Source: Pseudidiomarina aquimaris
GTDB lineage: Bacteria > Pseudomonadota > Gammaproteobacteria > Enterobacterales > Alteromonadaceae
Assembly (NCBI RefSeq): GCF_003987395.1
Contig: NZ_PIPT01000007.1
Location: forward strand, 1-64,000
Reading direction: 5' to 3'
Length of the DNA: 64,000 nt
In this document: positions 17,079-58,387 of the stretch, one piece after another
How the letters are laid out: each line of letters begins with the position of its first letter
Numbering within the stretch: position 1 is the stretch's first letter
The notes under the pieces: generated by a model
Database searches by the model: none
What the model saw: only the letters and a program-made list of their open reading frames with translations
What the model was told of the DNA's origin: nothing
Translations under genes and position numbers: made by a program

Positions 17079-17924
17079 TTATTTAGTGTCCAACAGATTG
17101 TGTGAGTTCATGCTTTCTTCCAGCAACGCATCCACCTTAAGAGCCTGACACATCTGTACGTAAAGCACATGACATAAATGCTGCATACCAAGTTGCATAA
17201 GCACGCTGTCGGTGCGCACGTGCGTGTCGCCACCTAAGGCGAAGATAGGAATGTCGGCGAGGATACTCGTGGGGTTATTACCGTAGCGCGTCAATGAGAT
17301 GACCTTGGCACCTTTACTCTTGGCTTGGCGCACTATTTTCAAAATGTCGCTATTTTGCCCGCCATCGGAGACCACAAATAAGACGTTGCCCTCACTCAAT
17401 GTGGTCGCCATTTGGATTTGCAGCGCAGGATCGGTGCTGCTGAGCGTCACCTTGCCCATTTGCATCAGACGTAGAACAAAGTCCTTAGCAACAATCGCTG
17501 ACTTGCCAAATCCCGCCACTTGAATGGTCTCGGCAGCAATGAGTAATTTCAGTGCGTGTTGAAGCTTTTCTGTCTCATTTAGGTCAGCGACGCCTTGCAA
17601 TACGGCATAGGTGGCGTCACGCAGTTCGCGGAAAGAAGTGGCGATAGAGCGCTCTTGGGAGGGGTGACTTGTGACCCTTCGCTGTTGACTCGAAGCTGAA
17701 ATCACCGCTTCATTCACCGCAAATTTAAGGTCAGGATAACCGCGGTAGCCTAATTTTTGGCTAAACTTAACCACACTTGATTGGCTGACACCGATGGCAT
17801 CAGCTAATTGTTGCGACGAGTAGTCGCGTAATAAATGCGTGTTATCGAGAATAAAATCAGCTAATTTGCGTTCTATAAGCGACATATCGTCACGCATGGC
17901 GCGGATTTTCAGTAAACAAGACAT
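17079..17924 (-). CDS. RpiR/MurR-family transcriptional regulator (first copy)
   Basis: A 281-residue repressor-type protein. Residues 1-77 form the HTH_6 domain (QQLADAIGVSQSSVVKFSQK) and residues 115-255 a SIS phosphosugar-binding domain (VAGFGKSAIVAKDF, VVSDGGQNSDILKIVRQAK). RpiR-family SIS domains sense sugar phosphates; MurR senses MurNAc-6-P. It is divergent from the stem-peptide operon starting at 18044, with an operator-like palindrome between them, so it probably controls that operon. It is paralogous to the RpiR gene at 47985. Confidence 0.88.
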   Translation of the reverse strand: MSCLLKIRAMRDDMSLIERKLADFILDNTHLLRDYSSQQLADAIGVSQSSVVKFSQKLGYRGYPDLKFAVNEAVISASSQQRRVTSHPSQERSIATSFRELRDATYAVLQGVADLNETEKLQHALKLLIAAETIQVAGFGKSAIVAKDFVLRLMQMGKVTLSSTDPALQIQMATTLSEGNVLFVVSDGGQNSDILKIVRQAKSKGAKVISLTRYGNNPTSILADIPIFALGGDTHVRTDSVLMQLGMQHLCHVLYVQMCQALKVDALLEESMNSHNLLDTK

Positions 17925-17964
17925 AGGCGCACGCTTATCTTCATAATCTATGAAAGTCGGTAGA

Positions 17965-18000
17965 CCATATTGAATAATTTATTACTCGTTGGCAATATGG
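17965..18000. promoter_or_regulatory. Operator region between RpiR gene and nhaC-like operon
   Basis: The 8-bp arms CCATATTG (17965-17972) and CAATATGG (17993-18000) form an inverted repeat. Just inside it lies GAATAATTTATTA (17972-17984), an 11/13 match to the core of the palindrome that recurs across this window. The position between divergent genes suits an autoregulated RpiR operator. Confidence 0.55.
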
Positions 18001-18043
18001 TCAGCAAAAATCCACCTACAACTACAAAACCAAGGTTGCTTTT

Positions 18044-19417
18044 ATGAGCTGGATGTCCGTGCTACCCCCATTGGTAGCAATTATCGTGGTGTTCTGGCGC
18101 AAAGAGGTTATTGTCGCTCTCTTGCTTGCCATTGTTACCTCCGAACTACTTTTAACCTGGCAAGGCGGTGAACCGTTAATCTACACGTTTGTGGCCACGA
18201 TTGAACGCATTATTTCGGTGTTTGGCTCAGCCGGCAATACCCGCATTCTCATCTTCAGTCTGATGGTGGGGGCTCTGTTAGCCTATATTCGCGAGTCCGG
18301 CGGTGTCGCTGCAACCGTTGAAGCCTTATTAGCGAAAGGCTTAGGCCGCACCAAGCGGTCAGCGAGCTTAATGACGGTATTTACCGGCATTTTTGTGTTT
18401 ATCGAATCGAACCTAAGCGTTCTGACCGCTGGTATTTTGTCGCGCGGTCTATTTGAAAAACTGGGCATGAGCCGTGCACGCTTGGCTTACATTATCGATA
18501 GCACCAGCGCGCCGATTTGTATTTTGATTCTGCTCAATGGTTGGGGTGCTTACATTCTGGGCATGCTCGATCAACAAGATCTGCCTGGTTCAAGTGTGAG
18601 CACCTTGTGGAGCACCATCCCATTTAACTTCTATGCGTTAGTCACCCTCATCATCGTGTTCTACACCGCCTTTAGCGGACGCGTGCATGGACCGCTACGC
18701 AAGACCGAAGAAAAGCCTGTCGAGCATAAAGATATTCCGGAACATGTGCCAAGCAACAGTAAAGCGCGCTATATGCTCGTACCACTTACCGTGATGGTGG
18801 TCGGTATGGTCGCCTTCATGTTCGGTACCGGCGGTGGCGATATCACCCAAGGTGACGGTTCTAAATCAGTGCTTTACGCAACAGTTCTGGCCTGTGTGGT
18901 GGCTTATTTTATGCTGATTTTCAGCCGCCGTAATACGCACCAACAGCTGGTTGATATTGGCTTCAAAGGCATGAGTGAATTGCTACCGCTGGTGTCTATC
19001 GTGCTGTTGTCACTTGCGCTTGGCGCCAGCTTGCGTGAACTAGGCACAGGTGTATTTTTGGCGGGCTTAGTCGGTGAATTCTTACCGTTATTCTTGATTG
19101 CGCCGATGCTATTCATTGCCGGCGCGCTGATTTCCTTCACCACCGGCACCTCTTGGGGTACTTTCGCTATCTTGATCCCAATTGCGGCACCGATGATTCT
19201 CGCACTCGACTTACCAGCGCCATTGTTGCTTGCGGCAGTGCTGGGTGGCGGTGTCTTCGGTGACCATTGTTCACCTATCTCAGACACCACCGCAGTTTCG
19301 GCGTTAGCCTCTGGCTGCGACTTGCTGGAACACGTGCGTACCCAGTTACCTTACGCGCTCACCGCTGGCACGATCACGCTGGTGCTGTACGTGGTGACTA
19401 GTCTTATCATGATTTAA
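18044..19417 (+). CDS. NhaC-family Na+/H+ antiporter-type transporter
   Basis: A 457-residue inner-membrane protein with about 11-12 hydrophobic segments and the NhaC-family signature region around TTGTSWGTFAILIPIAAP and GDHCSPISDTT. Members exchange Na+ for protons, malate/lactate or amino acids. It is the first gene of an operon with a serine hydrolase, alanine racemase, NlpC/P60 peptidase and dipeptide epimerase. A role in importing peptides or amino acids released from peptidoglycan therefore fits better than pH homeostasis, but this is inferred from context. Confidence 0.82.
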   Translation: MSWMSVLPPLVAIIVVFWRKEVIVALLLAIVTSELLLTWQGGEPLIYTFVATIERIISVFGSAGNTRILIFSLMVGALLAYIRESGGVAATVEALLAKGLGRTKRSASLMTVFTGIFVFIESNLSVLTAGILSRGLFEKLGMSRARLAYIIDSTSAPICILILLNGWGAYILGMLDQQDLPGSSVSTLWSTIPFNFYALVTLIIVFYTAFSGRVHGPLRKTEEKPVEHKDIPEHVPSNSKARYMLVPLTVMVVGMVAFMFGTGGGDITQGDGSKSVLYATVLACVVAYFMLIFSRRNTHQQLVDIGFKGMSELLPLVSIVLLSLALGASLRELGTGVFLAGLVGEFLPLFLIAPMLFIAGALISFTTGTSWGTFAILIPIAAPMILALDLPAPLLLAAVLGGGVFGDHCSPISDTTAVSALASGCDLLEHVRTQLPYALTAGTITLVLYVVTSLIMI

Positions 19418-21060: not shown

Positions 21061-22164
21061 ATGAGTAATGGCTTACACTTTCGCCCAACACGGGCTGAAA
21101 TCGACACTGACGCGCTGCGTCACAATGCAACAATGGCTCGCAAACATGCGGGCCATTGTAAGTTAATGGGTGTGATTAAGGCGAACGGCTACGGTCATGG
21201 CGCTGTCGAAGTTGCCCATGCAATTAATGGCAGTGTTGACGCGTACGGTGTCGCCTTTATCGATGAAGCACTAAAGCTCCGTGATGCAGGGTTTATCCAG
21301 CCGATCGTGTTACTCGAGGGCTGCTTTTCTGAAGCGGAGTTGCCCGTGTGTGCGCATTACAACTTGCAACCCGTGGTGCACCAGCAGGCACAGCTGGACG
21401 CGATTTTAAATGCCCGGCTTGTGAAGCCTTTGGCGGTATGGCTAAAGGCGGACACTGGCATGCATCGCTTGGGTTTTGCGCCAGAGCAAATCGAAGCTGT
21501 CAGCAAGCAACTTGAGAACTGCCCGCAGGTCGGCAGTGTCACGGTCATGACCCATTTTGCCAATGCCGATCGCCATCAGCACCCGCTAAATGAGCGTCAA
21601 CTCGATCGCTTCAACGAAGTCTGTGCCCGCACCACTCCAGCTCGTACTCTAAGCGCCGCCAACACGGCTGCGTTATTAAGTAGTGCGCTTGATTTAGGCG
21701 ATAAAGCTTCGCAATGGTGCCGCACGGGTATCATGCTCTACGGCGTCGACCCTACCGAACAGCAAGAAGCGTTGCCATTATTGCCAGCCATGCGCTTGCT
21801 TGCGCCGGTCATGGCCGTGCGTGAAGTCGCCGCAGGCGAAGCCGTCGGCTACGGCAGTCAATGGGTTGCCACGCGGCCCAGTCGTATCGCCACACTCGCT
21901 ATTGGCTACGCAGATGGTTACCCACGTCATGCACCGAACGGTACGCCGGTATGGCTGAATGGCGTCGAAGTGCCACTCGCTGGGACTGTTTCGATGGACA
22001 TGATCACGGTTGATGTCACTGATTTAGAACACCTAGAGGTTGGCGATGAAGCGGAACTTTGGGGCCCTAACCTTGCCGTTGCTAAGGTGGCTGAGGCGAT
22101 ACGAACGATCACTTATGAATTATTAACGCGCGTCAGTGAAAGAGTTCCTCGCCACTATAAATAA
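21061..22164 (+). CDS. alr: Alanine racemase
   Basis: A fold-type III PLP enzyme of 367 residues that interconverts L- and D-alanine. The PLP lysine is in MGVIKANGYGHG (about residue 40), the second catalytic Tyr in AVGYGSQW, and the conserved LAIGYADGYPR and SMDMITVDV blocks are present. The length is standard. Its place between a serine hydrolase and a muropeptide endopeptidase suggests a catabolic alanine racemase that converts D-Ala from stem peptides, although a cell-wall biosynthetic role cannot be excluded. Confidence 0.92.
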   Translation: MSNGLHFRPTRAEIDTDALRHNATMARKHAGHCKLMGVIKANGYGHGAVEVAHAINGSVDAYGVAFIDEALKLRDAGFIQPIVLLEGCFSEAELPVCAHYNLQPVVHQQAQLDAILNARLVKPLAVWLKADTGMHRLGFAPEQIEAVSKQLENCPQVGSVTVMTHFANADRHQHPLNERQLDRFNEVCARTTPARTLSAANTAALLSSALDLGDKASQWCRTGIMLYGVDPTEQQEALPLLPAMRLLAPVMAVREVAAGEAVGYGSQWVATRPSRIATLAIGYADGYPRHAPNGTPVWLNGVEVPLAGTVSMDMITVDVTDLEHLEVGDEAELWGPNLAVAKVAEAIRTITYELLTRVSERVPRHYK

Positions 22165-22172
22165 TTTATGCC
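22158..22172. promoter_or_regulatory. Operator-like palindrome, upstream site of the NlpC/P60 gene
   Basis: TAAATAATTTATGCC matches the proposed GGAATAATTTATTCC site at 12 of 15 positions by my count. It straddles the alr stop codon and lies 18 bases from a second, perfect palindrome. Confidence 0.4.
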
Positions 22173-22189
22173 AAAATAGAGCATGCGTA

Positions 22190-22238: not shown

Positions 22239-23681
22239 GTGAAGAAACTTGCACTCGCATTCGCCATCAGTCCGCTATTATTGGCCTGCAGCCAAGCAGA
22301 GCAAGCTGCGGTTAGCCAAAGCGTTGACACATCGGTCGCCGTCACTGCTGCCGAGACGCAGCAGTTGCCGAACTATTCCACTGATGTCATAGGGGTTGAG
22401 CAGCAGTACCTAGAACCGGAATTCTGGCTGCAGCGTCTCGAACAACCGCATGCATTGGTGATGACGGCTGACGAAATTTCCGACTTCAATGCGCGTTCGT
22501 ACCGCTTGCAAGACGAGATGGTGTATTTAACCGAGCAACCCACTGAGCTAACAGCCGCAGAACTCACTGCAAAAATCGATAGTATCAGCGGCTTGCCAAG
22601 CTACCCACGCCATTTTGCCGATGGTCGCCAAGCCACCGACGACGAATTAGCCGCCTATCGCAATGCCAGTAACTTCGCAGCGATTGCGGAGCGTAACCCG
22701 GTGCGCTTCGGTTTGGTCGTACAGCGCACCCCGATGCGTACGTTTCCGACATTAGACAAACTCTACAGCGAAGATCTTGATACCGACATTGACCGCTTCC
22801 AAGAAACCGGCGTGTTCCCTGGTATGCCATTAGCTATTTTGCATACCAGCAGCGACGGCGAATGGTACCTTGCGCAATCGTTCCATTACCTTGCTTGGAT
22901 TCAAGCCAAGCACGTTGCGCTGGGTCCACGTGAAGAAGTCTTAGCCTTCGCTGAAAAAGAACCATTTGCCGTGGTCACCGAAGCAAAAGTACATACTAAT
23001 TACACGCCAAGTATGCCGGCGGTATCCGAAGTTCAGCTCGATATGAGTACGCGTTTACCGTTACTAAGCGCCGAACAGACCGGCCATAACGTGCATGGAC
23101 AGAATCCATTCGCCAGCTATACGGTCGAAATGCCCATCCGTGATGCGAATGGCGAACTCGCCTTTACCCCAGCATTGATTCCGCGCCATAACGACGTCAA
23201 TGTCGGCTACCTGCCCTATACCGAAGCCAATGTAATCACCCAAGCCTTTAAGTTCTTAGGTGAGCGCTACGGTTGGGGACATGACTACAACGCCCGTGAC
23301 TGCACCGGCTTTGTGCTTGAAGTCTATCGCACCATGGGCATCGAAATGCCGCGTAATTCAAGCCAACAAGGCTATGGCGAGTATGGTCAAAATGTCGTTT
23401 ATGACGACAACAGCAGTAACGAAGAGAAACTGGCGCGCCTTGATAACGCGCACGTTGGCGACTTGATTTATCTACCCGGACATGTGGTCATGTATTTAGG
23501 TAAGTTAAACGGCGAACACTACGTTATCCATGACGTACACGGCCTCAGCTACACTGATAGCAATGGTGAGTATTACGAGGGCACCTTAAATGGTGTCTCA
23601 GTGACACCGCTCACAACCCTAGGCTTCGGCAAAAATGACACCTACCTTGATCGCATCTACGCAATCAAGTCGGTACGCTAA
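22239..23681 (+). CDS. NlpC/P60 endopeptidase lipoprotein with SH3-like domains
   Basis: A 480-residue lipoprotein (LLLAC, Cys 17). The middle part resembles bacterial SH3 domains (RNPVRFGLVVQRTPMRTFP, then HTSSDGEWYLAQSFHYLAWI). The C-terminal papain-like NlpC/P60 domain has the catalytic Cys in DCTGF (C355) and His in PGHVVMYLG (H415). Relatives such as YkfC and dipeptidyl-peptidase VI cut between gamma-D-Glu and diaminopimelate, releasing L-Ala-D-Glu. The next gene, 12 bases downstream, is the epimerase for exactly that dipeptide. The start is a GTG preceded by AGGGAG. Confidence 0.88.
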   Translation: MKKLALAFAISPLLLACSQAEQAAVSQSVDTSVAVTAAETQQLPNYSTDVIGVEQQYLEPEFWLQRLEQPHALVMTADEISDFNARSYRLQDEMVYLTEQPTELTAAELTAKIDSISGLPSYPRHFADGRQATDDELAAYRNASNFAAIAERNPVRFGLVVQRTPMRTFPTLDKLYSEDLDTDIDRFQETGVFPGMPLAILHTSSDGEWYLAQSFHYLAWIQAKHVALGPREEVLAFAEKEPFAVVTEAKVHTNYTPSMPAVSEVQLDMSTRLPLLSAEQTGHNVHGQNPFASYTVEMPIRDANGELAFTPALIPRHNDVNVGYLPYTEANVITQAFKFLGERYGWGHDYNARDCTGFVLEVYRTMGIEMPRNSSQQGYGEYGQNVVYDDNSSNEEKLARLDNAHVGDLIYLPGHVVMYLGKLNGEHYVIHDVHGLSYTDSNGEYYEGTLNGVSVTPLTTLGFGKNDTYLDRIYAIKSVR

Positions 23682-23693
23682 ACAGGACGCTTT

Positions 23694-24797
23694 ATGAAAA
23701 TTACCGATATCAAACTTGCTAAGTTACGCGTGCCGTTGAAAACGCCTTTTAAAACGGCATTACGCACCGTTGAATCCATTGAAGACATTGTGGTCATGGT
23801 ACATACCGATACGGGTCATGTAGGCTATGGCGAAGCGCCTGCCACTGCAGTAATTACCGGCGATACCCATGGTTCTATCATTGAAGCCATCGACCGTATT
23901 ATTAAGCCGAAAATCGTCGGCCAAGATGTCTCTGAACTCAACCACATCGTTGGTTTGATTCAAAACGGTATTATTCGTAACTACAGTGCCAAGGCCGCCG
24001 TCGAAATGGCTGTCTATGACCTCTGGGGCCAACTCTACGACGCCCCACTCTATAAAATGCTCGGTGGCGGCGTACCGACCATCTCAACCGACATTACGAT
24101 TAGTGTCGACTACATCGATAAGATGGTTGCCGATTCACTTGAAGCCATTGACCGCGGTTTTGAAACCTTAAAAATTAAGGTTGGCAAAGACATCGGTGTG
24201 GACATCGAACGCGTTAAAGCGATTTATGCTGCAGTCGAAGGCAAAGCGTTGTTGCGCCTCGATGCGAACCAAGGCTGGACGCCGAAAGAGGCGGTCTATG
24301 CGCTAAATAAGCTGGAAGACGCGGGCGTACGCTTGGAATTGGTCGAGCAGCCTGTGAAAGCGCGCGACATCGATGGCATGAAATTTATCACCGAGCGCGT
24401 TAATACCCCGGTCATGGCGGATGAAAGTAGCTTTGGCCCACGCGAAGTTATTGAGCTTATCAAGATGCGTGCTGCCGACATCATTAACATCAAGCTGATG
24501 AAAACCGGTGGTATTTCGAATGCAATTAAGATTGCCGACATCTGCTCTGTGTACGACATGCAGTGCATGATCGGTTGTATGCTGGAGTCGAGTATCAGCG
24601 TCTCTGCAGCGGTTCACTTGGCAGTGGCGAAATCGAACGTCATCACCAAAATCGATCTCGACGGTCCATCGTTATGCGCCTTTGATCCAGTTGAAGGTAG
24701 CGTGAAATTTAAAGAGTCGGAGATCTCAATCGCCGACGCTCCAGGCCTTGGCGTCCAGTCGGTTAAGGGTCTTGAGCCGATAAACCTAGAACGCTAA
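23694..24797 (+). CDS. L-Ala-D/L-Glu dipeptide epimerase
   Basis: An enolase-superfamily enzyme of 367 residues. The acid/base lysines are K162 in LKIKVGKD and K267 in INIKLMKTGG; the metal ligands are D190 (LRLDANQGW), E218 (VEQP) and D243 (MADESS). The DxD at 321-323 (KIDLDGP) binds the dipeptide amino group and is diagnostic of Ala-Glu epimerases. It converts L-Ala-D-Glu to L-Ala-L-Glu, allowing ordinary peptidases to complete stem-peptide breakdown. A 9-bp terminator hairpin lies 12 bases beyond its stop. Confidence 0.92.
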   Translation: MKITDIKLAKLRVPLKTPFKTALRTVESIEDIVVMVHTDTGHVGYGEAPATAVITGDTHGSIIEAIDRIIKPKIVGQDVSELNHIVGLIQNGIIRNYSAKAAVEMAVYDLWGQLYDAPLYKMLGGGVPTISTDITISVDYIDKMVADSLEAIDRGFETLKIKVGKDIGVDIERVKAIYAAVEGKALLRLDANQGWTPKEAVYALNKLEDAGVRLELVEQPVKARDIDGMKFITERVNTPVMADESSFGPREVIELIKMRAADIINIKLMKTGGISNAIKIADICSVYDMQCMIGCMLESSISVSAAVHLAVAKSNVITKIDLDGPSLCAFDPVEGSVKFKESEISIADAPGLGVQSVKGLEPINLER

Positions 24798-33225: not shown

Positions 33226-33401
33226 AGCTACCTTTTACGCTGAGCGTTGTGAAACCAGTGATAGGCTGCCAACAATGCATGACAGTTCTGTGCAGAATGG
33301 ATGAATAGTTTGTGACAGACGAACGTTGAACCGAAACGCACATGACAGCGTTTTCATCTACACTGTTACCGTTAACTCATTCTTGCTTGGGAAATTACCG
33401 C

Positions 33402-41859: not shown

Positions 41860-42074
41860 AAGTAATTTTCTGTGCATTTTTTAGTCTTCGACTTGACCTC
41901 TCTGATGATACTAATGAATTTCTTCTTAAATTACCTTAACTTAAATAGTTAAAGCGAATTTGTTGCGGAATGTGACAGACATCAGTACACCGCTATGTAA
42001 AAAATTTATGCCTATAAAGTCTAACCAGCGCTCCGCTTATTACTCGCTGAAGAATAAGCACCCAACATTTCTAT

Positions 42075-42089
42075 GGAATAATTTATTTT
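42075..42089 (+). promoter_or_regulatory. Operator-like site upstream of nagZ-like gene
   Basis: GGAATAATTTATTTT matches GGAATAATTTATTCC at 13 of 15 positions, 73 bases before the start codon. It is a candidate RpiR-family site. Confidence 0.55.
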
Positions 42090-42162
42090 TTGTAAAAGCT
42101 CACGTACGATAGCTCTAGAATTTTACGTAACCTTTTTCCATCATCGAATAAAGAGTATAGCC

Positions 42163-47865: not shown

Positions 47866-47924
47866 AGGCGCTCCTGCATGAGTTTAAACTTGGGTTTTGC
47901 TATTCAGTCTAACTAGTTTATATT

Positions 47925-47939
47925 TGAATAAAAAATTCC
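47925..47939. promoter_or_regulatory. Operator-like site between dld and second RpiR gene
   Basis: TGAATAAAAAATTCC matches the proposed palindrome at 12 of 15 positions and sits midway in the 119-base divergent spacer. It could serve both genes. Confidence 0.45.
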
Positions 47940-47984
47940 GTTAGCTTTCGGATGCTAACGCTTGGACCCTAAAGGTGGGACACG

Positions 47985-50020: not shown

Positions 50021-50949
50021 TGTTGCGACTCCACGGCGCGGCGCAAAAAGCCATGCTTTTCTTGTAGTAAGTTTTCAGCTTGTTCTGCTGGCAAACCAGT
50101 AAGAATCATTAAAATTGCTAACTTTGCACGATTATCGGCGCTTTTGAGTGCATTTTCGGCGACGTTGCGCTCGCATGAGGTGGCTTGCATAACAATTCTA
50201 ATGGCCCGCGCACGCAGTTTTTCATTACTAGCATTCACATCAACCATCAGGTTTTCGTAGGTTTTGCCTAAGCGAATCATGCTTGCGGTGCTCAGCATAT
50301 TTAGCACCAGTTTTTGTGCGGTACCTGATTTCATCCGCGTTGAACCCGTTAAGGCCTCAGGCCCCACCACCGCGCAAATACCTATTTTAGCGGTGGTCAT
50401 TAACGGCGAATTCGGATTACAGGTAATTGACGCAGTAGCGCAGCCGATGCTGTTCGCATACTCAAGTGCGGCCACAACATAAGGGGTGCGACCACTAGCC
50501 GAGAGCCCGACGAGTACATCATTGGCGCTTAAGTTCACAGCTTTTACATCGTTAACACCCGCTTCGCGATCATCCTCAGCACCCTCTACGGCGAATTGAA
50601 TCGCATGCTCACCGCCGGCGATAATCCCCTGCACCAAGTCATCAGGAACACTAAAGGTCGGCCGACATTCAACCGCATCAAGAATCCCTAAACGACCACT
50701 GGTACCAGCGCCGATGTAGAATAGTCGCCCGCCACTTTGCAACTTGTCGACGATGGCATCGACCGCTTGTGCGATTTGCGGGATCTGACTTGCAACGGCT
50801 GGGGCAACTTGAGCGTCTTCGTGATTAATCTTTCGGAGAATCGCCTCGCTCGACAATAAATCAATGTCGAGCGTGTCGGGATTACGCCCCTCCGAAACAA
50901 TACTGTTAAGTTGTGCCAACAGGTCTTCAGTTTTATTCATATCTTCCAT
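50017..50949 (-). CDS. murQ: N-acetylmuramic acid 6-phosphate etherase
   Basis: A 310-residue SIS-domain lyase that splits MurNAc-6-P into GlcNAc-6-P and D-lactate. The catalytic Glu region is [12 protein letters not shown], the sugar-phosphate loop [12 protein letters not shown], and [20 protein letters not shown] is the diagnostic C-terminal block. The length fits the family (about 300). A start at the internal Met 4 (50940) is possible. It begins 2 bases after the symporter gene. No MurP phosphotransferase is present, so MurNAc must be phosphorylated by a kinase. Confidence 0.95.
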
Positions 50950-50951: not shown

Positions 50952-52541
50952 TTATGCTTCACTTACTTTGCGCTGATTTGTTGGTGCCGTATTCGATTGA
51001 CTACCGGCCAAACAAATCAGCGTTGAAATTGCAGTACCGATCATCAATTGCCAGGTGAAACCAATATCGGTCACCCAGTCTGCCGGTAATAATAGTTGCT
51101 GCGTATACGGCTGCATCACTAATGGGACAAAGAAGCCAACAACGAGTGCGGTGGTTACCGAGCGACTACTGCCTCGTTTGCTAAACAGCGTGACAAAATA
51201 GACGCCAAGCAGACCGCTGTATGAGAACACCATCACGCTCAAGGCAAACTGCAGTAACGGGGTTTCGGTATATTGCTGCCAGTAATAACATAGGCACGCC
51301 ATCAGTCCGAGCGCAGCAGCGACCACCGCCATCCCCACGCGGCCCGCCTTCACATAGTGCTCGTCACTATACTGTTTACCTTTGCGTTGCTGCCACGGCC
51401 GGTAGATATCTTGAATCACCACACTCGACATAGAATTGAGACCTGAGTTAAGCGTCGACAATGCCGCGGCGATAATACCGATGGTCACCAAGCCACGCAC
51501 GCCCGCAGGGATTTCGGTCAATACGTAGTACATAAAAATAGTGACCGCTTCACCCGCAAAGGTCGGTACTGGACCGTCGGCTTGACCGCTCGCCATAATA
51601 TCGGGGCGCTGGTAATAGATGAACAACAGTAAACCGATGATAATAAACAGCAGCATCACCGGAATCACCATTACCACCGACATCAAGATAGCCTTGCTAC
51701 CCTCTTTAGCATCTTTACAGGTTAGCACCCGTTGGGTCATATCTTGGTCGAGGCCGAAAGCTGCAATGTTCAACAAAACAAAGCCGGTCAATACCGACCA
51801 AATATTGAATACCCCAGAGCTACTGAAATCCACGTTGGTATCAATCAAGGTCAGTTTCGACGGCTCGCCTGGCGCTGGATTTTGCAAAGCGCTCACCAGC
51901 TCACCGAAGCTTACTGGGATGGCATTGTAAAGCACGATTATTACAGCTATTGCAGCGCTTACGTATACCACAGCTTGCAACACATCCGAGTAAATAACCG
52001 TACGAATCCCGCCATACACGGTGTAAACGAGACCAATGAAGGTGAGTAACAAAGTAGCGGTGATGACGCTATCGGCATCAATATTGCCGAACAAGATCAT
52101 GGCCACCGCAATAGCCGCCATATACAGGCGCGCGCCGCTGGCAAATACCCGACCAAACAAATACATCAGCCCGGCTTCGCGTTTGGCTCGCTCACCAAAG
52201 CGTTGCTCAAGTAACTCGTAGACCGTGTAAACGCGCTGCTCGTAGAACTTAGGAATGAGAAATAGTGCGACAAACCCGACCGCAATAAACGCACCAATAT
52301 TGGTCGCCAAATAGGTGAGATCGCCGCGGTAGCCCTGATCAGGACCACCGAGGAACGTCGCCGCCGATTGCGAAGTGGCGAGCACCGAAATCGCCACCAC
52401 CCACATCGACATTTTGTTACCGCCAAGAAAGTAGTCTTGTGTCGAACTACTCTTACGATTAAACAACCAGCCACTACCCAGCAGCACTAAACCGTAAGCC
52501 ACAAAGACCAGAATATCGGCAAAGGAATATTGACCTAGCAT
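50952..52541 (-). CDS. SSS-family sodium:solute symporter, candidate MurNAc importer
   Basis: A 529-residue inner-membrane protein with about 13-14 transmembrane segments and the SLC5 signature ([23 protein letters not shown] in part, and [19 protein letters not shown]). SSS transporters bring in sugars, sialic acid or amino acids with Na+. It is the first gene of the symporter-murQ-namZ operon and stands where other bacteria have the PTS transporter MurP, so MurNAc is the best substrate guess. An operator-like site lies about 33 bases upstream. Confidence 0.85.
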
Positions 52542-52573
52542 CGTCCGTCGCTTCTTTGAGTCATCATACGCCT

Positions 52574-52588
52574 AAAATAAATTATTCC
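52574..52588 (-). promoter_or_regulatory. Operator-like site upstream of symporter-murQ-namZ operon
   Basis: AAAATAAATTATTCC matches the palindrome at 13 of 15 positions. Further GGAATA half-sites lie at 52606 and 52619. Proximity to the start (about 33 bases) fits a repressor covering the promoter or leader. Confidence 0.55.
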
Positions 52589-52623
52589 ACTACGAATGTA
52601 TATACGGAATATAAATTTGGAAT

Positions 52624-52680: not shown

Positions 52681-53964
52681 TTAGGGGCGTTCGCTTATGA
52701 GTTGTTGGACGGTGCGGCGTAGCAGAGTCTCGAGTTTGGCACCGGCGTGGCCGACGTTGGCTTCGGTGTTTTCCGGTACGCTGGCTTGTGCGGCAACGGT
52801 GAACTCGCGGGTACCGTCAGCCAATGGTAGACAGATGTGGGCTAACGCTACGACTTCACTGGTGCCGCGGGTTTCACTTGGGCCTGCGCCAAGTTTATGG
52901 AAAATACGCCAATTGCCGTTAGTGGCGGTGTCGAGTGTCTCTTGCACGCTGAGGTCAGCCAGCTCTGGGTATTCAGCCTGCAACGCTTGCGCGACGGCGC
53001 GGTGCGGGGTTAGGCTTGCGCCCGCCATCATGCCCCCAGCATCTGCGCTATTCTCGCTGTGCCCAGGACCATAAAAGAGCATCATCACCGCGTCATCACT
53101 CAGTCCAGGCATACGCGTTGAAGGGACGCGTTTATGGGTCGCCAAACGCTTCAGAAACTCGGCGGAAGCGAGGGTCGTCATCGGTTTATTGCCAGTCAGG
53201 CCACACTCTTCACAGCGGTAGCTGAGTGCGCCCGGATCGCTATCGCGAGCAACAATTTGTGCACTGACGGAGCGCGAGGCCGTGCGCCAATAGGTATCAC
53301 TCGGAGCAAACGCAGAAGGTCCATAAGCACCGCGAAATTTCACTTCCGACTGGCCGATGTTGAGCCAGGCGTCATGAAATAATGCGGTCAAATAATCGCG
53401 CCCGGCGACATTGGCAAAATAATAGGCAATCGCGTTCGAGTTGCCGTCAGCAGCGCCAGAAGCCTCGTAGCTATGCACGCTGGTAATGAGATCGGCTAGC
53501 TTGACCTCACCCACGACTGTATCAGGCTGAGCGAAATTGTCGCTAAACAAAGACATCGCACCGGCATAGGCCATAATTTTTGAGGAGCTCCAAGGCTCAT
53601 AGAGATCATCGTGGGTTTCGTCGTTTGCGAGGTAGCGAAAGGCAAGCTCATCACCTTTTTGGGCATAATCAATCACCAACACCTTGCCGGCATCGTCACT
53701 GAAGTCAAAGTGCTCCCAATTATGCGCACTGCGCTCGACCCAGCCACGCTCACGCCCTACTTCACTAACAGTGGCATAGCGCGCGTCGGTTGCACTGATA
53801 TTAGGTGCGCAGGCCTGCCAACGCTGCTCAGCATTTGCCGGCTTCAATGGTGCTGCCCCCATAACCTGTTCGTAATAAGCAAGCCCCGTCGGCTCTTCGG
53901 CTGTGCAAGCAATGAGTGGCAGCAAAGCGCAGCAGCTTAAAACGTATTTTGTTGTTTTTTTCAT
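52681..53964 (-). CDS. Lipoprotein resembling class A beta-lactamase/PBP serine hydrolase
   Basis: A 427-residue lipoprotein (lipobox LIAC near residue 20). The central part looks like a Beta-lactamase2 fold: a SxxK candidate (SSSK in YEPWSSSKIMAY), a motif-2 region reading NSN instead of SDN (DGNSNAIAY), and a KxG candidate (FHKLGAGPSETRG). Motif spacing is plausible, but the altered second motif makes activity uncertain. Its gene is divergent from the nagK operon and shares its control region, so it may trim peptide from muropeptides. A non-enzymatic binding role is the alternative. The product family is not recognised with certainty. Confidence 0.65.
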   Translation of the reverse strand: MKKTTKYVLSCCALLPLIACTAEEPTGLAYYEQVMGAAPLKPANAEQRWQACAPNISATDARYATVSEVGRERGWVERSAHNWEHFDFSDDAGKVLVIDYAQKGDELAFRYLANDETHDDLYEPWSSSKIMAYAGAMSLFSDNFAQPDTVVGEVKLADLITSVHSYEASGAADGNSNAIAYYFANVAGRDYLTALFHDAWLNIGQSEVKFRGAYGPSAFAPSDTYWRTASRSVSAQIVARDSDPGALSYRCEECGLTGNKPMTTLASAEFLKRLATHKRVPSTRMPGLSDDAVMMLFYGPGHSENSADAGGMMAGASLTPHRAVAQALQAEYPELADLSVQETLDTATNGNWRIFHKLGAGPSETRGTSEVVALAHICLPLADGTREFTVAAQASVPENTEANVGHAGAKLETLLRRTVQQLISERP

Positions 53965-53992
53965 CGTTTGATTCCTTATTATTCCCAGATTA

Positions 53993-54007
53993 AGAATAAA
54001 GTATTAC
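53993..54007. promoter_or_regulatory. Operator-like site between PBP-like gene and nagK operon
   Basis: AGAATAAAGTATTAC matches the proposed palindrome at 12 of 15 positions. A TATTATTCC half-site lies nearby (53977-53985). The divergent spacer is 112 bases. Confidence 0.45.
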
Positions 54008-54076
54008 AAAACAGGTGGCAAAGTATGGCAGTATGTCTGCTATAACAAAACACGAACACTTAAAGAAAGATAGTTT

Positions 54077-54991
54077 ATGTCGCAGAAGAAATCGTCAGAG
54101 CCTACACCGCTGTATTTTGTCGGAATCGACGGCGGCGGCACCAAGTGTCGCGCCGAGCTCTATGACACAACAGGAAACCTGCTGGGTGCCGGTGTGGCGG
54201 GTGCTGCTAATATTGCGCGCAACGGCGACGTCGCAAGGCAATCAATTCTTGATTCAGTCAAGGCTGCTATCGAACACGCCAACCTGCCACCGGAAACACT
54301 GGCAAGTACGCTCGCTTGTGGCGGTTTCGCCGGGGCAAACTTGCCGTCAGCCAGTAATGCGCTGAAACAATGGCAGCATCCATTTCATAGCTTTTATTTC
54401 ACCTCTGACCTACACACCGCCCTCTACGGCGCCCACGACGGAGCGAACGGTGCAGTTCTCGTTATAGGTACGGGCTCTTGCGCCGCGGCACTGAAAGATG
54501 GCGAGCTGACACAGTTTGGCGGTCACGGCTTTCTACTTGGCGACAAAGGTAGTGGTGCATGGCTCGGCAAGCAGGCTGTAGTGCACACCCTCGAGGCTAT
54601 CGACGCTATCCAACCCAAAGGGCAACTGGCCGAGGCCGTTTGCGACCACTATCAAGCGCATAGCGCAACCGCTCTGGTCGACAAACTGAACCAAGCGAAT
54701 CCTGGCGTGTTTGGTGAACTTTGCCCGATCATTCTCGAGTTAGCCCATCATGCGGAGCCCACTGCGCAAGCGCTCGTAAAAGAGGGCTGTGAGTACCTTA
54801 GCGCAATCGCGCGCAAGGCAATACAACAGAGCAACGGCGCGCTCGTGCTGGCAGGTGGTGTCGCGCATGCCCTGCAACCGCTGCTCGATAGCGACGTTCA
54901 AGCAAAACTCACCAGTAGCACCCACGGGCCGGAATGGGGTGCCATCATGCTTTACCAGCATGGCGCATTTAACCAAGGAGCAAATGCATGA
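54077..54991 (+). CDS. nagK: BadF/BadG-family amino-sugar kinase (GlcNAc and possibly MurNAc)
   Basis: A 304-residue ASKHA kinase with phosphate-1 motif GIDGGGTKCRAELYD, phosphate-2 region VIGTGSCAA and adenosine motif LAGGVA. Homologues include Shewanella GlcNAc kinase and the Clostridium MurK enzyme, which phosphorylates both MurNAc and GlcNAc. Because this locus has murQ but no MurP phosphotransferase or AnmK, dual specificity would complete the pathway. It starts the operon nagK-nagB-II-nagA-nagP and overlaps the next gene by four bases. Confidence 0.85.
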   Translation: MSQKKSSEPTPLYFVGIDGGGTKCRAELYDTTGNLLGAGVAGAANIARNGDVARQSILDSVKAAIEHANLPPETLASTLACGGFAGANLPSASNALKQWQHPFHSFYFTSDLHTALYGAHDGANGAVLVIGTGSCAAALKDGELTQFGGHGFLLGDKGSGAWLGKQAVVHTLEAIDAIQPKGQLAEAVCDHYQAHSATALVDKLNQANPGVFGELCPIILELAHHAEPTAQALVKEGCEYLSAIARKAIQQSNGALVLAGGVAHALQPLLDSDVQAKLTSSTHGPEWGAIMLYQHGAFNQGANA

Positions 54992-55983: not shown

Positions 55984-57107
55984 TGTTTGTTTGCGACTAC
56001 GTACTTACGCCGCAGGGCTGGCTACACAATCAGCAAGTCATCCTCGAACACGGCCGCGTGAAAGCGATTCACGATGCGCCCGCACAGCACGACTTGCCGG
56101 TCTATCACGGCCGACTGGTGCCCGGTTTTATCGACGTGCAAGTCAATGGCGGCGGTGGTGTGCTGTTTAACCAAGAACGTACACCGAAAGCGCTGCAACA
56201 AATCATGGCCGCGCACCTGAAGTACGGCACGATCGGCATGATGCCTACGTTGATTACCGATAGTGTTGAGGCCATGCTCGACGCCGCCCAAGCGGTGAAA
56301 GATGCCAAGCAACAAGGCATCCCCGGTATTTTGGGTGTGCATTTCGAAGGCCCTTGGCTGAGCGTTAAGCGCAAAGGCGTGCACAGTGAAAAGTATATTC
56401 GTGAACCTAGCGACGCCGAACTCGCGCTGCTGACCGACCCTGAACTCGGGCTGGTCATGGTCACCTTGGCCCCAGAAACCGCCTCAACGCAGGTCATCAA
56501 AAAGCTGAGTGACGCAGGGATCAAAGTCTTCTTGGGTCACTCGGATGCCAACGCAGAGCAAGTTAACGAAGCGCTCGATGCCGGTGCTATTGGTTTCACG
56601 CACCTCTTTAATGCGATGTCGCAGTTGCACTCTCGAGCGCCAGGCATGGTCGGTGTGTGTCTTGCTCGCGACGCCTATGCCGGCCTCATTGTTGATGGCT
56701 ACCATGTCGACCCGCAGGCGTGCCAAATTGCCTTTCGTGCAAAAGGCAAACAGCAGATGATGCTGGTCACCGATGCCATGGCTTTGGCCGCAACCGAGGC
56801 AACCGAAGTGCCATTTTTTGACACTAAGATCCTCCGCGACGGCGACAAGCTAACAACGCCAGACGGTACCCTTGCGGGCTCCTGCTTAACCATGCTGGAC
56901 GCCGTTAAAAATACCGTCAACATGTGCGGCGTACCCCTCGCCGATGCTGTCGAAATGGCAGCGACGACCCCCGCAAAAATGCTTGGCCTCGAACATGAGT
57001 TCGGTTGTATCGCCGCCGGTCATGTCGCCAATTTCATGTTATTAGATGAACATTTAAACATTGCGCAGCTCTGGCTGCACGGTGAACCTACGCAACAGGA
57101 AGGGTAA
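55983..57107 (+). CDS. nagA: N-acetylglucosamine-6-phosphate deacetylase
   Basis: A 374-residue amidohydrolase that removes acetate from GlcNAc-6-P, the product of both the kinase and MurQ. Metal and catalytic residues are visible in HFEGPWLS, LGHSDANAEQ, FTHLFNAMSQ and VTDAMALA. The length is standard. It starts on the last base of the previous stop and is followed two bases later by nagP. Confidence 0.95.
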   Translation: MFVCDYVLTPQGWLHNQQVILEHGRVKAIHDAPAQHDLPVYHGRLVPGFIDVQVNGGGGVLFNQERTPKALQQIMAAHLKYGTIGMMPTLITDSVEAMLDAAQAVKDAKQQGIPGILGVHFEGPWLSVKRKGVHSEKYIREPSDAELALLTDPELGLVMVTLAPETASTQVIKKLSDAGIKVFLGHSDANAEQVNEALDAGAIGFTHLFNAMSQLHSRAPGMVGVCLARDAYAGLIVDGYHVDPQACQIAFRAKGKQQMMLVTDAMALAATEATEVPFFDTKILRDGDKLTTPDGTLAGSCLTMLDAVKNTVNMCGVPLADAVEMAATTPAKMLGLEHEFGCIAAGHVANFMLLDEHLNIAQLWLHGEPTQQEG

Positions 57108-57109
57108 CC

Positions 57110-58387
57110 ATGGCCACTTTTATTCCGATGCTCGTCATTGGCTTATTATTCTTTATTTTCGGTTTTGTGACCTGGCTTAACGGCGCTTTGATACCGTTTT
57201 TACAGATCATTTCTGACTTGAACGAGTTTCAGGCCTTGCTCATCGCCTTCTGTTTTTATATCGCCTACGTTGTCATGGCATTGCCGATGTCGTGGGTGCT
57301 TGACCGTACTGGCTACAAAAACGGTATGGTCGTTGGCTTAGCGCTCATTGGTTGCGGACTTTTGCTCTTCGTACCTGCCGCGCAAACCCATTACTTCAGT
57401 ATCTTTCTGCTGGCCCAGTTTGTTGTCGGTTCGGGTCTAACGATTTTACAAACCGCGTCGAACCCCTACATTGTGCGTATCGGTCCTCACGAATCCGCCG
57501 CCGCCCGTATCGCCATTATGGGGATTCTAAATAAGATAGCTGGCGTGATTGCGCCGGTCTTCTTTACTTGGCTAGTGCTGGCCGACTTTCCGAATGTCAC
57601 CGCCGCCAGCATTGCCGAGCTCAGCGCCAGCGAGCGCGCTGACCAAGTCGCGGCAATGGCCGCGAAGATCATTCCACCTTATGTTGGCATGGCCGTCGCC
57701 ATGTTTGTGCTCGCAGTCGCGTTTTTCATGGTGCGCCTGCCGAAAATAAAAGAGGAAGCGCCTTCGGGTGCTGCGGTACACGAGTCGGTTTTAAAATACC
57801 CACAGCTCGTACTCGGCGCGATCGCGCTGTTTTTCTACGTAGGTGTAGAAGTCATTGCCGGCGACACCATTGGAATGTATGGCTCGAAGTTAGGTCTGGC
57901 CAATTATTCCAGCCTGACCTCTTACGTAATGGCAGCCATGGTCGTCGGTTATGTGCTTGGCTTGATTCTAATTCCGCGCTGGCTCAGCCAACAGGGTGCC
58001 CTAACCGGCTCAGCGCTGCTTGGCTTAATTTTCACTGGCCTGTTGTTGATTAGCTCCGACGCCAGCACCACCATTGCCAGCGTATTGTGGGGCTGGAGCG
58101 GCGTACCGTTAGTGCCCGATTCTGTAGCTTTCTTAGCGCTTCTCGGCTTTGCCAATGCCATGGTGTGGCCAGCGATTTGGCCACTGGCGTTGGCTGACCT
58201 AGGCAAGTTCACCGCGCGTGGCTCAGCGATTTTGATCATGGGGATCGCCGGTGGCGCAATTTTACCGCTGGTCTATGGCGCCATGGCTGAAGGGCTAGGC
58301 AACAAAGGCGCGTACAGTTTATTGCTCGTTGGCTACCTTATAATCGGCTGGTACGGCATCAAAGGTCACAAAAAGCGCAGCTGGTAA
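57110..58387 (+). CDS. nagP: MFS N-acetylglucosamine transporter NagP
   Basis: A 425-residue major-facilitator protein with 12 predicted helices, of the FucP/GluP/NagP group (LNGALIPFLQIISDL near the N-terminus and QTASNPYIVRIGP in helix 4-5). In Shewanella and relatives NagP is the inner-membrane GlcNAc permease linked to NagK. Location at the end of the nagK-nagB-II-nagA operon strongly supports GlcNAc as substrate. Confidence 0.9.
   Translation: MATFIPMLVIGLLFFIFGFVTWLNGALIPFLQIISDLNEFQALLIAFCFYIAYVVMALPMSWVLDRTGYKNGMVVGLALIGCGLLLFVPAAQTHYFSIFLLAQFVVGSGLTILQTASNPYIVRIGPHESAAARIAIMGILNKIAGVIAPVFFTWLVLADFPNVTAASIAELSASERADQVAAMAAKIIPPYVGMAVAMFVLAVAFFMVRLPKIKEEAPSGAAVHESVLKYPQLVLGAIALFFYVGVEVIAGDTIGMYGSKLGLANYSSLTSYVMAAMVVGYVLGLILIPRWLSQQGALTGSALLGLIFTGLLLISSDASTTIASVLWGWSGVPLVPDSVAFLALLGFANAMVWPAIWPLALADLGKFTARGSAILIMGIAGGAILPLVYGAMAEGLGNKGAYSLLLVGYLIIGWYGIKGHKKRSW

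What the first reader, a model, noticed from the sequence alone, without database searches (positions are those of the whole stretch)
17079..58387. Near-complete peptidoglycan scavenging system encoded by two gene clusters
Between 17 and 25 kb and between 35 and 58 kb the window encodes every step needed to live on peptidoglycan fragments: a TonB receptor, exported NamZ- and NagZ-type exoglycosidases, an amidase/PBP4B fusion, an NlpC/P60 endopeptidase, a symporter, kinase, MurQ, NagA, NagB-II, NagP, dipeptide epimerase, alanine racemase and D-lactate dehydrogenase. Pieces of this pathway are known in E. coli, Bacillus and Clostridium. An outer-membrane-to-glycolysis version with exported lipoprotein enzymes and TonB uptake in a marine bacterium looks little described. 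Family assignments are seen directly; the integrated pathway is inferred.
Basis: partly seen in the sequence, partly recalled or inferred. Interest (0 to 1): 0.85.

Follow-up and report, generated by a model that had tools for sequence, protein, structure and literature searches.

The report
One-regulon peptidoglycan-scavenging locus in Pseudidiomarina
A marine bacterium carries one co-inherited, apparently co-regulated set of genes that looks built for eating cell-wall fragments, made mostly of known enzymes but including a previously unrecognised family of secreted enzymes with a penicillin-binding-protein-like fold.

Summary
The gene list is real and the reading largely holds: MurQ, NamZ, B. 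subtilis-type NagZ, AmpDh3-type amidase/PBP4B fusion, NlpC/P60, dipeptide epimerase, Alr, NagK/B-II/A/P, SSS symporter and TonB receptor are present. (3) NamZ and MurQ are accessory (42 and 44 of 98 family genomes) while AnmK of own-wall recycling is in 98 of 98, which argues for catabolism. 'Every step' is overstated: this genome has no dedicated MurNAc kinase (NagK would have to be bifunctional), no endolytic enzyme was identified in the locus, and the peptide importer is unproven. A comparable murein PUL in a marine Bacteroidota is in print, so this is a new variant of a known kind.

The parts
17079..17924 (-). RpiR/MurR-family regulator paralogue (rpiR1), divergent from the first operon
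   Evidence: HTH_6 + SIS; NF008590 164 bits, below cut-off
17970..17986 (+). operator-like site between rpiR1 and nhaC
   Evidence: 20.0 bits; 1 mismatch to GGAATAATTTATT
18044..19417 (+). PF03553 (NhaC-type) transporter; candidate importer of murein dipeptide or another product (inferred)
   Evidence: PF03553 148 bits; near namZ in 12 of 30 relatives; an nhaC is also in the murein PUL of PMC10199937
19433..21046 (+). exported PF00144 + DUF3471 serine hydrolase (bla1)
   Evidence: near namZ in 6 of 30 relatives
21061..22164 (+). alanine racemase
   Evidence: TIGR00492 350 bits, cut-off 168
22157..22173 (-). weaker operator-like site at the alr/nlpC boundary (overlaps the end of alr)
   Evidence: 14.5 bits; 2 mismatches
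22239..23681 (+). lipoprotein SH3b + NlpC/P60 endopeptidase, gamma-D-Glu-diamino acid type
   Evidence: PF12913 + PF00877; best PDB match 3m1u 7.1e-21 with the Cys aligned
23694..24797 (+). L-Ala-D/L-Glu epimerase
   Evidence: best PDB match 1jpm, L-Ala-D/L-Glu epimerase, 4.8e-103
33342..34757 (+). exported amidohydrolase (peripheral, membership uncertain)
   Evidence: PF01979; no match in the 30 relatives
34744..37230 (-). lipoprotein fusion: AmpDh3/AmiD-type Zn amidase + PG-binding + PBP4B
   Evidence: PF01510, PF01471, NF002968 461 bits; PDB best 4bxd/2bh7; full-length fusion in 28 of 98 family genomes, 25 of them NamZ+
37215..38729 (-). PF04820 flavin-dependent halogenase-like protein next to the TonB receptor (peripheral: absent from the G026 block)
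   Evidence: PF04820 567 bits
38821..41772 (-). TonB-dependent receptor
   Evidence: PF07715 + PF00593; orthologues in 9 of 98 genomes, all NamZ+ (8 candidates scored per genome)
41844..41860 (-). operator-like site, TBDT/nagZ intergenic
   Evidence: 21.3 bits; core exact
42074..42090 (+). operator-like site, TBDT/nagZ intergenic
   Evidence: 21.3 bits; core exact
42163..43986 (+). lipoprotein GH3 NagZ, two-domain B. subtilis (YbbD) type
   Evidence: best PDB match 3bmx YbbD 2.8e-88, KHFPGHGDT aligned
43973..45133 (-). M14 zinc peptidase without signal sequence (MpaA-like role inferred)
   Evidence: PF00246; NF007897 24.5 bits, cut-off 157
45142..47865 (-). FAD/FeS oxidase, putative D-lactate dehydrogenase
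   Evidence: PF02913, PF01565, Fer4; within the fetched 40 kb in 12 of 30 relatives
47924..47940 (-). operator-like site, dld/murR intergenic
   Evidence: 17.6 bits; 2 mismatches
47985..48833 (+). MurR-like RpiR regulator
   Evidence: NF008590 243 bits, NF012026 184 bits, both below cut-off
48830..50020 (-). lipoprotein NamZ (GH171) exo-muramidase
   Evidence: PF07075 280 bits, PF20732 103 bits; 4jja 2.7e-106
50017..50949 (-). MurQ, MurNAc-6-P etherase
   Evidence: TIGR00274 419.6 bits; 1nri/4lzj 4e-105
50952..52541 (-). SSS-family symporter, putative MurNAc importer (MurT-like by family and neighbourhood; MurT itself not compared)
   Evidence: TIGR00813 202.8 bits; near namZ in 22 of 30 relatives
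52573..52589 (-). operator-like site upstream of the symporter
   Evidence: 21.1 bits; core exact; similar site upstream of SSS in 21 of 46 distinct relatives' regions
52681..53964 (-). founding member of a new secreted family: predicted serine hydrolase with PBP/beta-lactamase-like fold
   Evidence: no Pfam/NCBIfam match; AF2 pLDDT 92.6; Foldseek class A beta-lactamases 2.1e-7, prob 1.00; S126, K129, S176, N177, K357, G359 invariant in 56 sequences; 73 loci
53992..54008 (-). operator-like site between the new family gene and nagK
   Evidence: 17.8 bits; core 2 mismatches
54077..54991 (+). NagK-type BadF kinase; would also have to phosphorylate MurNAc if the pathway is complete
   Evidence: NF046058 295 bits, cut-off 370; the only match of the BadF kinase profile in this genome
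54988..55983 (+). NagB-II GlcN-6-P deaminase
   Evidence: NF046059 483.7 bits
55983..57107 (+). NagA GlcNAc-6-P deacetylase
   Evidence: TIGR00221 297.5 bits
57110..58387 (+). NagP-like GlcNAc MFS transporter
   Evidence: NF046060 490 bits, cut-off 625

Best explanation
This is one accessory locus for catabolism of external peptidoglycan fragments, split here by an 8-kb stretch of other genes (DedA and S9 peptidase to olsF) and probably controlled by MurR-like RpiR regulators through a shared palindrome (consensus TGGAATAATnTATTCCA). Proposed route: the TonB receptor brings muropeptides over the outer membrane (inferred). In the periplasm lipid-anchored NagZ and NamZ remove GlcNAc and MurNAc from chain ends; the amidase/PBP4B fusion, the new PBP-fold enzyme and NlpC/P60 strip and cut the stem peptides (specificities inferred from families; that of the new enzyme is unknown). 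MurNAc enters by the SSS symporter and is phosphorylated, here by the NagK-type kinase for want of another (inferred). MurQ splits MurNAc-6-P into GlcNAc-6-P and D-lactate; NagA and NagB-II lead to fructose-6-P, and the linked FAD/FeS enzyme oxidises D-lactate (inferred). L-Ala-D-Glu enters by an unproven carrier (NhaC-type candidate) and is epimerised; Alr handles alanine. Shown: genes, co-inheritance, recurrent order, operator-like sites. Inferred: the fluxes and the regulator-site pairing.
For: Family and structure assignments. NamZ in 42 of 98 and MurQ over its cut-off in 44 of 98 family genomes, both in 40, Fisher 2e-20; in 38 of 42 NamZ genomes murQ starts within 2 kb. Of 9 genera in which NamZ or MurQ varies, 6 have them present or absent together, and in 5 of these 6 the fusion follows (in g45 both genomes have only an amidase-half match); 3 genera have MurQ-only genomes. 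NlpC (cluster 1) and NamZ (cluster 2) are in the same 12 of 26 genomes of the genus. One 27-kb block in G026. Operator: 9 matches with up to 2 mismatches in the window against 1.15 expected, 0 of 100 shuffles reach 9; a matrix from SSS promoters of relatives puts its top 7 window sites (14 bits or more) in six intergenic regions of the locus, against a mean of 0.125 in 8 simulated windows; genome-wide 3 of 3 exact sites are in the locus. AnmK in 98 of 98 genomes and AmpG elsewhere in this genome point to separate own-wall recycling.
Against: No growth or expression data. No dedicated MurNAc kinase found in this genome. No endolytic enzyme was identified in the locus, so it handles fragments or free ends, not whole sacculi, unless others help. 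TonB receptor orthologues (E 1e-100 or better; only 8 candidates scored per genome) are in only 9 of 42 NamZ genomes, so the outer-membrane step is not a core part. The operator at up to 2 mismatches is hardly above the reversed-pattern control genome-wide (21 against 17), and 25 of 46 distinct symporter upstream regions lack a 13-of-17 match, G026 among them. The matrix sites were picked with a consensus that goes back to the window. Which of the two RpiR proteins binds was not tested. The 98-genome tests are not corrected for phylogeny beyond the genus contrasts. G067, NamZ+ and MurQ+, has no AmpG match, so in it the locus could have a recycling part.
Confidence: 0.77

Rival explanations
1. 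The locus mainly salvages the cell's own wall turnover products that escape AmpG, as argued for MurQ in E. coli and Gram-positives, rather than external peptidoglycan.
For: MurQ serves own-wall recycling in E. coli, S. aureus and B. subtilis (PMC5061867 passages). The same enzymes would act on self and foreign fragments, MurQ must also meet MurNAc-6-P made by AnmK, and one NamZ+ genome, G067, has no AmpG match.
Against: AnmK is in 98 of 98 family genomes and AmpG lies elsewhere in this genome, while MurQ is in 44 and NamZ in 42 of 98, and 14 of 26 genomes of the genus lack NlpC and NamZ. A TonB receptor with exported exoenzymes and a shared operator suits external substrate.
Confidence: 0.17
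2. Two neighbouring but independent functions: a GlcNAc/chitin nag operon and a murein-peptide operon, with MurNAc genes as a minor link.
For: Nag genes lie away from mur genes in most relatives (nagA, nagB and nagP within the fetched 40 kb in only 2 of 30).
Against: Congruence of NlpC and NamZ within the genus, operator-like sites at both operons and at nagK, and mixed operons in relatives such as newfamily-nlpC-epimerase-SSS-kinase-murQ-namZ.
Confidence: 0.04
3. An antagonistic or predatory wall-attack system, with uptake secondary.
For: Several exported wall-active hydrolases lie together.
Against: The sugar enzymes belong to exo-acting families, the enzymes look anchored to the cell's own envelope by lipobox-like N-termini, no secretion system or immunity gene was seen among the genes scanned inside the locus, and much of the locus is catabolism and transport.
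Confidence: 0.02

Closest known systems
Tannerella forsythia murT-murK-murQ operon with AmpG (PMC5790795, PMC7670621 passages; PMC10465942 outline and passages)
   Same: SSS-family symporter, BadF-family kinase and MurQ linked; Gram-negative scavenging of MurNAc
   Different: Here the in-operon kinase is absent (present in many relatives), AmpG lies elsewhere, NamZ, NagZ, NlpC, epimerase and a putative D-lactate oxidase are linked; host is a gammaproteobacterium
Bacillus subtilis murQRP-amiE-nagZ-ybbC(namZ) muropeptide rescue cluster (PMC5061867 passages)
   Same: MurQ, MurR-type regulator, two-domain lipoprotein NagZ and exported NamZ together
   Different: SSS symporter instead of PTS MurP; AmpDh3-type amidase fused to PBP4B instead of AmiE; peptide catabolism and TonB receptor added
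E. coli murR / murQ-murP-yfeW(PBP4B) divergon (PMC5061867 passages)
   Same: MurQ, RpiR regulator and a PBP4B homologue
   Different: PBP4B is fused to an amidase; no PTS in the locus; exported exoglycosidases added
Urechidicola symbiont murein PUL in Idas mussels (PMC10199937 passages)
   Same: Outer-membrane TonB uptake with murQ, nagB, epimerase, ampD, carboxypeptidase, nhaC, GH3 and GH171 in a marine bacterium; also a 'nis' sodium co-transporter, a name of the SSS family (recalled)
   Different: Bacteroidota with SusCD pairs, AmpG and DeoR; no operator described in the passages seen; inferred from a fragmented symbiont genome
B. subtilis ykf murein-peptide genes (recalled)
   Same: gamma-D-Glu-diamino acid endopeptidase plus L-Ala-D/L-Glu epimerase
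   Different: Joined here to aminosugar catabolism under one operator-like site
Class A beta-lactamases / penicillin-binding proteins (for ORF 52681-53964)
   Same: Fold by Foldseek (E 2.1e-7, prob 1.00) and SxxK, SN, KxG in order
   Different: No sequence similarity found by phmmer, profile or Pfam; about 430 aa, with an invariant CxxC between the second and third motif; TM over the query only 0.31-0.41; neighbourhood of murein catabolism

Membership tests
MurNAc catabolic locus (MurQ type) | MurQ etherase over curated cut-off | tested here: met
   TIGR00274 419.6 bits, cut-off 302
MurNAc catabolic locus (MurQ type) | MurR/RpiR regulator divergent or adjacent | tested here: met
   HTH_6+SIS at 47985-48833, best NCBIfam RpiR/MurR models though below cut-off
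MurNAc catabolic locus (MurQ type) | MurNAc uptake by a PTS MurP | tested here: not met
   no PTS domain among the scanned genes of the locus; SSS symporter instead; rest of the genome not searched for it
Tannerella MurTKQ operon | SSS symporter next to MurQ | tested here: met
   50952-52541 next to 50017-50949; TIGR00813 202.8 bits
Tannerella MurTKQ operon | kinase inside the operon | tested here: not met
   not in the window; only a NagK-type match in this genome at 152 bits, against 429-442 bits for in-operon kinases of G009, G054, G067
Tannerella MurTKQ operon | MurNAc specificity residues T94/S133/P134/L135 of TfMurK | tested here: inconclusive
   by register from the catalytic and GD aspartates the window has S109 and G147-G148-H149 (A4 numbering, start codon not counted; placed by hand, TfMurK itself not aligned over this loop); 8zo3, named MurNAc/GlcNAc kinase, has GGW. 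Compatible, not diagnostic
NamZ (GH171) | both Pfam domains and export | tested here: met
   PF07075 and PF20732; lipobox-like N-terminus by eye
B. subtilis-type NagZ | two-domain exported GH3 with His-Asp motif | tested here: met
   3bmx 2.8e-88, KHFPGHGDT..DSH aligned; the match covers residues 31-446, the far C-terminus not aligned
B. subtilis muropeptide rescue | AmiE-type amidase | tested here: inconclusive
   the amidase half is AmpDh3/AmiD type; the PBP4B half was not compared with AmiE
Murein-peptide module (YkfB/YkfC type) | SH3b-NlpC/P60 endopeptidase and L-Ala-D/L-Glu epimerase | tested here: met
   3m1u 7.1e-21, 1jpm 4.8e-103
Polysaccharide utilisation locus sensu Bacteroidota | SusC/SusD pair | tested here: not met
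   TonB receptor without any SusD match among scanned proteins
Penicillin-binding/serine beta-lactamase fold (ORF 52681-53964) | SxxK, SxN-like and KxG motifs in order | tested here: met
   invariant in 56 sequences, S126/K129, S176/N177, K357/G359; the second motif reads S-N, not a strict SxN; motif meaning recalled
Penicillin-binding/serine beta-lactamase fold (ORF 52681-53964) | fold | tested here: met
   pLDDT 92.6 model; 414 PDB matches at E 0.001 or better, of the 50 listed the best are class A beta-lactamases; TM 0.31-0.41 over the query, 0.45-0.60 over beta-lactamase targets, 0.27-0.43 over PBP3 chains, rmsd 6-14 A: same core, not a close match
Penicillin-binding/serine beta-lactamase fold (ORF 52681-53964) | acylation by penicillin or peptidase activity | not testable with these tools
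   needs protein

The most novel reading that the evidence does not exclude
Marine gammaproteobacteria have a dedicated, horizontally mobile or repeatedly lost peptidoglycan-utilisation regulon under MurR-like control of a TGGAATAATnTATTCCA operator. It includes a new family of secreted PBP-fold serine hydrolases and an amidase-PBP4B fusion that exist to eat walls rather than to build them, and in Pseudidiomarina a single NagK-type kinase has taken over MurNAc phosphorylation.
Probability: 0.55. Interest if true: 0.65.

Novelty: new variant of a known kind. Interest (0 to 1): 0.52.

Why it matters
Peptidoglycan is a nitrogen-rich pool in sea water and sediment (recalled), yet who takes it up with which genes seems poorly mapped. 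A marker locus, an operator-like motif and a new enzyme family make it possible to look for such bacteria in metagenomes, to predict regulon members and to test one pathway from outer membrane to glycolysis in culturable Alteromonadaceae. The new family also shows that secreted PBP-fold enzymes with no recognisable sequence signature remain unannotated.

Tried and rejected
Single-sequence AlphaFold2 of ORF 52681-53964 failed (pLDDT 34.1); only the 56-sequence alignment gave a usable model. Sequence searches did not see the fold (phmmer nothing relevant; profile against PDB best E 0.0097 to an unrelated protein; Pfam on 56 members without a consistent hit). The operator at up to 2 mismatches cannot be used genome-wide (21 against 17 for the reversed control). 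The two 1-mismatch sites outside the locus were looked at: C17:105016 lies upstream of another TonB receptor, C21:94015 among what read by eye like surface-polysaccharide genes; neither was taken into the regulon. The matrix has some circularity: the consensus used to pick the 11 training sites was first seen through the window's own intergenic regions; the training sites come from relatives outside the genus, though one of the eleven also occurs in two Pseudidiomarina loci. In one search, 8 of the 54 regions were the same genome met twice by two routes; one search recounts 46 distinct ones, 21 of them with a match. Kinase residues could not decide MurNAc specificity. I considered counting the S9 peptidase (25210-27291), DedA and cytochrome bd genes as members and rejected it: an S9 match near namZ in 3 of 30 relatives, only 1 of them over 35% identity and 60% coverage. 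Gene-content counts rest on 30 of the 41 other NamZ+ genomes (11 not fetched). Literature searches (open-licence PMC papers only) listed no paper on this locus in Alteromonadaceae. No paper was read whole: PMC10465942 was seen as outline and passages; PMC5790795, PMC5507952, PMC3022706, PMC10199937, PMC7670621 and PMC5061867 as passages; the rest only as listings. The NamZ founding paper was not in the listings and is recalled.

Full report
What is there. The window is contig C20:1-64000 of a 2.80-Mb, 99.99% complete genome. Named relatives of one of its proteins point to Pseudidiomarina: the closest hits, 87% identical, are P. homiensis and Pseudidiomarina sp. CB1. PDB sequence searches sharpen the assignments: NagZ is closest to the two-domain lipoprotein YbbD/NagZ (3bmx, 2.8e-88), the epimerase to the L-Ala-D/L-Glu epimerase 1jpm (4.8e-103; B. 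subtilis origin recalled), the NlpC/P60 protein to a putative gamma-D-glutamyl-L-diamino acid endopeptidase (3m1u, 7.1e-21), the amidase half of the fusion to AmpDh3 and AmiD, MurQ to HI0754 and a solved MurQ, and NamZ to 4jja.

One locus, not two. In the congener G026 the genes M14, bla1, alr, nlpC, epimerase, amidase-PBP4B, TBDT, nagZ, dld, murR, namZ, murQ, SSS, the unannotated gene, nagK, nagB, nagA and nagP form one block of about 27 kb; nhaC, rpiR1 and the halogenase were not matched in its 40 kb. Over 26 genomes of the genus, NlpC (cluster 1) and NamZ (cluster 2) are found in exactly the same 12 and missing from the same 14, 14-27 kb apart in 11 of the 12; in G113 they lie on separate contigs. 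In the sample of 98 family genomes NamZ is in 42, MurQ over its cut-off in 44, both in 40. NamZ-only: G018, G064; MurQ-only: G002, G065, G078, G088. In 38 of the 42 NamZ genomes a murQ starts within 2 kb. Of nine genera in which NamZ or MurQ varies, six have both or neither and three contain MurQ-only genomes; the fusion follows in five of the six, while in g45 both genomes have only an amidase-half match. The full-length fusion is in 28 of 98 genomes (G031 in two pieces), 25 of them NamZ+; outside are G002, G015 and G088. In 40 kb around namZ of 30 relatives (of 41), murQ is found in 28, nagZ 26, SSS 22, murR 19, a BadF kinase 16, nhaC 12, dld 12, amidase-PBP4B 11, alr 11, M14 8, nlpC 8, the new family 8, epimerase 7, bla1 6, nagA, nagB, nagP and TBDT 2 each, and the halogenase 1 (35% identity and 60% coverage, kinase any identity).

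A shared operator. Comparing the window's own intergenic regions showed a repeated GGAATAATTTATT. It has 9 matches with up to 2 mismatches in 64 kb against 1.15 expected, and none of 100 shuffles reached 9; one of the nine lies in a coding region outside the locus. In 11 Pseudoalteromonas loci it is a perfect palindrome, TGGAATAATATATTCCA, 24-27 bases before the symporter ORF. Of 46 distinct symporter upstream regions 21 hold a match of 13/17 or better, the 11 Pseudoalteromonas sites among them, and 25 do not; of mononucleotide shuffles 0.5% do. A matrix from 11 distinct sites of relatives outside the genus gives seven window sites of 14 bits or more, all in six intergenic regions of the locus (rpiR1/nhaC, alr/nlpC, TBDT/nagZ twice, dld/murR, SSS upstream, new family/nagK), against a mean of 0.125 in 8 simulated windows; the selection of training sites is partly circular (see Tried and rejected). 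In the whole genome the 3 exact sites are all in the locus and 4 of the 6 sites with at most 1 mismatch are; with 2 mismatches the pattern is near noise (21 against 17 for the reversed control). The binding protein is inferred from the two RpiR/MurR-type regulators, not shown.

A new enzyme family. The ORF 52681-53964 has no Pfam or NCBIfam match. It is in 16 of 98 family genomes, all 16 NamZ-positive (hypergeometric 1.8e-7, not phylogeny-corrected). A pattern-based scan of the collection of 84,980 species genomes found 73 loci (a floor), by their record titles in gammaproteobacteria (Pseudidiomarina, Alteromonas, Paraglaciecola, Bowmanella, Glaciecola, Pseudoalteromonas, Microbulbifer, Thalassotalea, and MAGs labelled Woeseiaceae, Kangiellaceae and Oceanospirillales). 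Within 10 kb, 41 of 73 have at least one of murQ, namZ, SSS, nlpC, epimerase, amidase-PBP4B, nagZ or M14 (murQ 36, namZ 35, SSS 32); 32 do not, and 20 of these 32 show at most a diguanylate-cyclase match besides it. With 56 sequences AlphaFold2 gives pLDDT 92.6 and pTM 0.91; Foldseek lists class A beta-lactamases first (E 2.1e-7, probability 1.00, 414 matches at E 0.001 or better), though TM over the query is only 0.31-0.41 and rmsd 6-14 A in the 50 rows listed. S126xxK129 at the start of a long helix, S176-N177 at the start of another, and K357xG359 on a strand are invariant, the order and placing of the three motifs of penicillin-recognising enzymes (recalled). I infer a secreted serine hydrolase acting on muropeptides; bond and activity are unknown.

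Catabolism or recycling. AnmK, the kinase of own-wall recycling, is in 98 of 98 family genomes (in G029 as a fragment at a contig edge). AmpG is found in 6 of 7 genomes tried, elsewhere in this genome and also in G070, the congener that lacks NamZ and MurQ; G067, which has both, gave no AmpG match. MurQ and NamZ are accessory. This argues for a separate catabolic purpose, although MurQ will also act on recycled MurNAc-6-P.

The gaps. Relatives carry a distinct BadF kinase mostly inside SSS-kinase-murQ-namZ operons (13 rows in A5); that it is a MurNAc kinase is inferred from its place. A profile of it scores 429-442 bits in G009, G054 and G067 but only 152 bits in this genome, on nagK, and finds no second kinase here. 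If the pathway is complete here, the NagK-type enzyme must act on MurNAc, as the Clostridium MurK does on both sugars (PMC5790795 passage). The residues named for Tannerella MurK (PMC10465942 passages) do not exclude it: small S109 before the catalytic Asp and G147-G148-H149 in the lactyl loop (A4 numbering), against GGW in 8zo3, named a MurNAc/GlcNAc kinase. No endolytic muramidase or transglycosylase was identified among the scanned ORFs of the locus. The dipeptide importer is unproven; the NhaC-type gene is a candidate because it recurs (12 of 30) and because an nhaC also sits in the murein PUL of PMC10199937. TonB receptor orthologues are in 9 of 98 genomes, all NamZ-positive (8 candidates scored per genome, so a floor); by the coordinates, 7 of the 9 lie within about 12 kb of an amidase-PBP4B match, two of these seven being matches to the PBP4B half only.

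What is known. E. coli murR/murQ-murP-yfeW and B. subtilis murQRP-amiE-nagZ-ybbC supply most parts (PMC5061867 passages), and Tannerella supplies the SSS symporter-kinase-etherase trio. The closest whole system seen is a 27-kb PUL of a marine Bacteroidota symbiont with SusCD, murQ, nagB, ampG, epimerase, ampD, dacA, nhaC, GH3 and GH171 (PMC10199937 passages). MurNAc utilisation was predicted from MurQ plus the GlcNAc pathway in mat bacteria (PMC5507952 passages). Hence: new variant of a known kind, with a new protein family and a testable regulon.

Noticed in passing
L175 (G000:C17:105016-105042): Two adjacent operator-like sites (1 and 2 mismatches) lie upstream of a second TonB-dependent receptor elsewhere in the genome (receptor read by eye); it may be another member of the regulon.
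   Followed up: partly
37215-38729: Halogenase-like flavoprotein (PF04820) between TBDT and amidase-PBP4B carries WRWKIP, the WxWxIP signature (recalled); a halogenase match beside the same TBDT recurs in G009 and L163, and a short one in L166, but not in G026. Role in murein use unknown.
   Followed up: no
54077-54991: The in-operon BadF kinase of relatives is missing in G000 and G026; G070, which lacks MurQ and NamZ, has no match of this kinase profile at all.
   Followed up: partly
43973-45133: The M14 peptidase reads as cytosolic in the window but starts with a signal-like segment (by eye) in G026, G097, G063 and G042, so its compartment may differ between relatives.
   Followed up: partly
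61650-63215: A further PF00144+DUF3471 hydrolase just outside the locus; it and the GGDEF protein 59338-60486 flank the nag genes in 8 other Pseudidiomarina loci too.
   Followed up: no
31489-33225: Bifunctional ornithine lipid synthase OlsF (802.8 bits, cut-off 620) in the stretch between the two halves.
   Followed up: no
1525-3057: RHS-repeat fragment.
   Followed up: no
L126, L131: In two MAG loci the new family sits beside two namZ-like genes (33-38%) and a murQ (50-53%), a divergent version of the locus.
   Followed up: no
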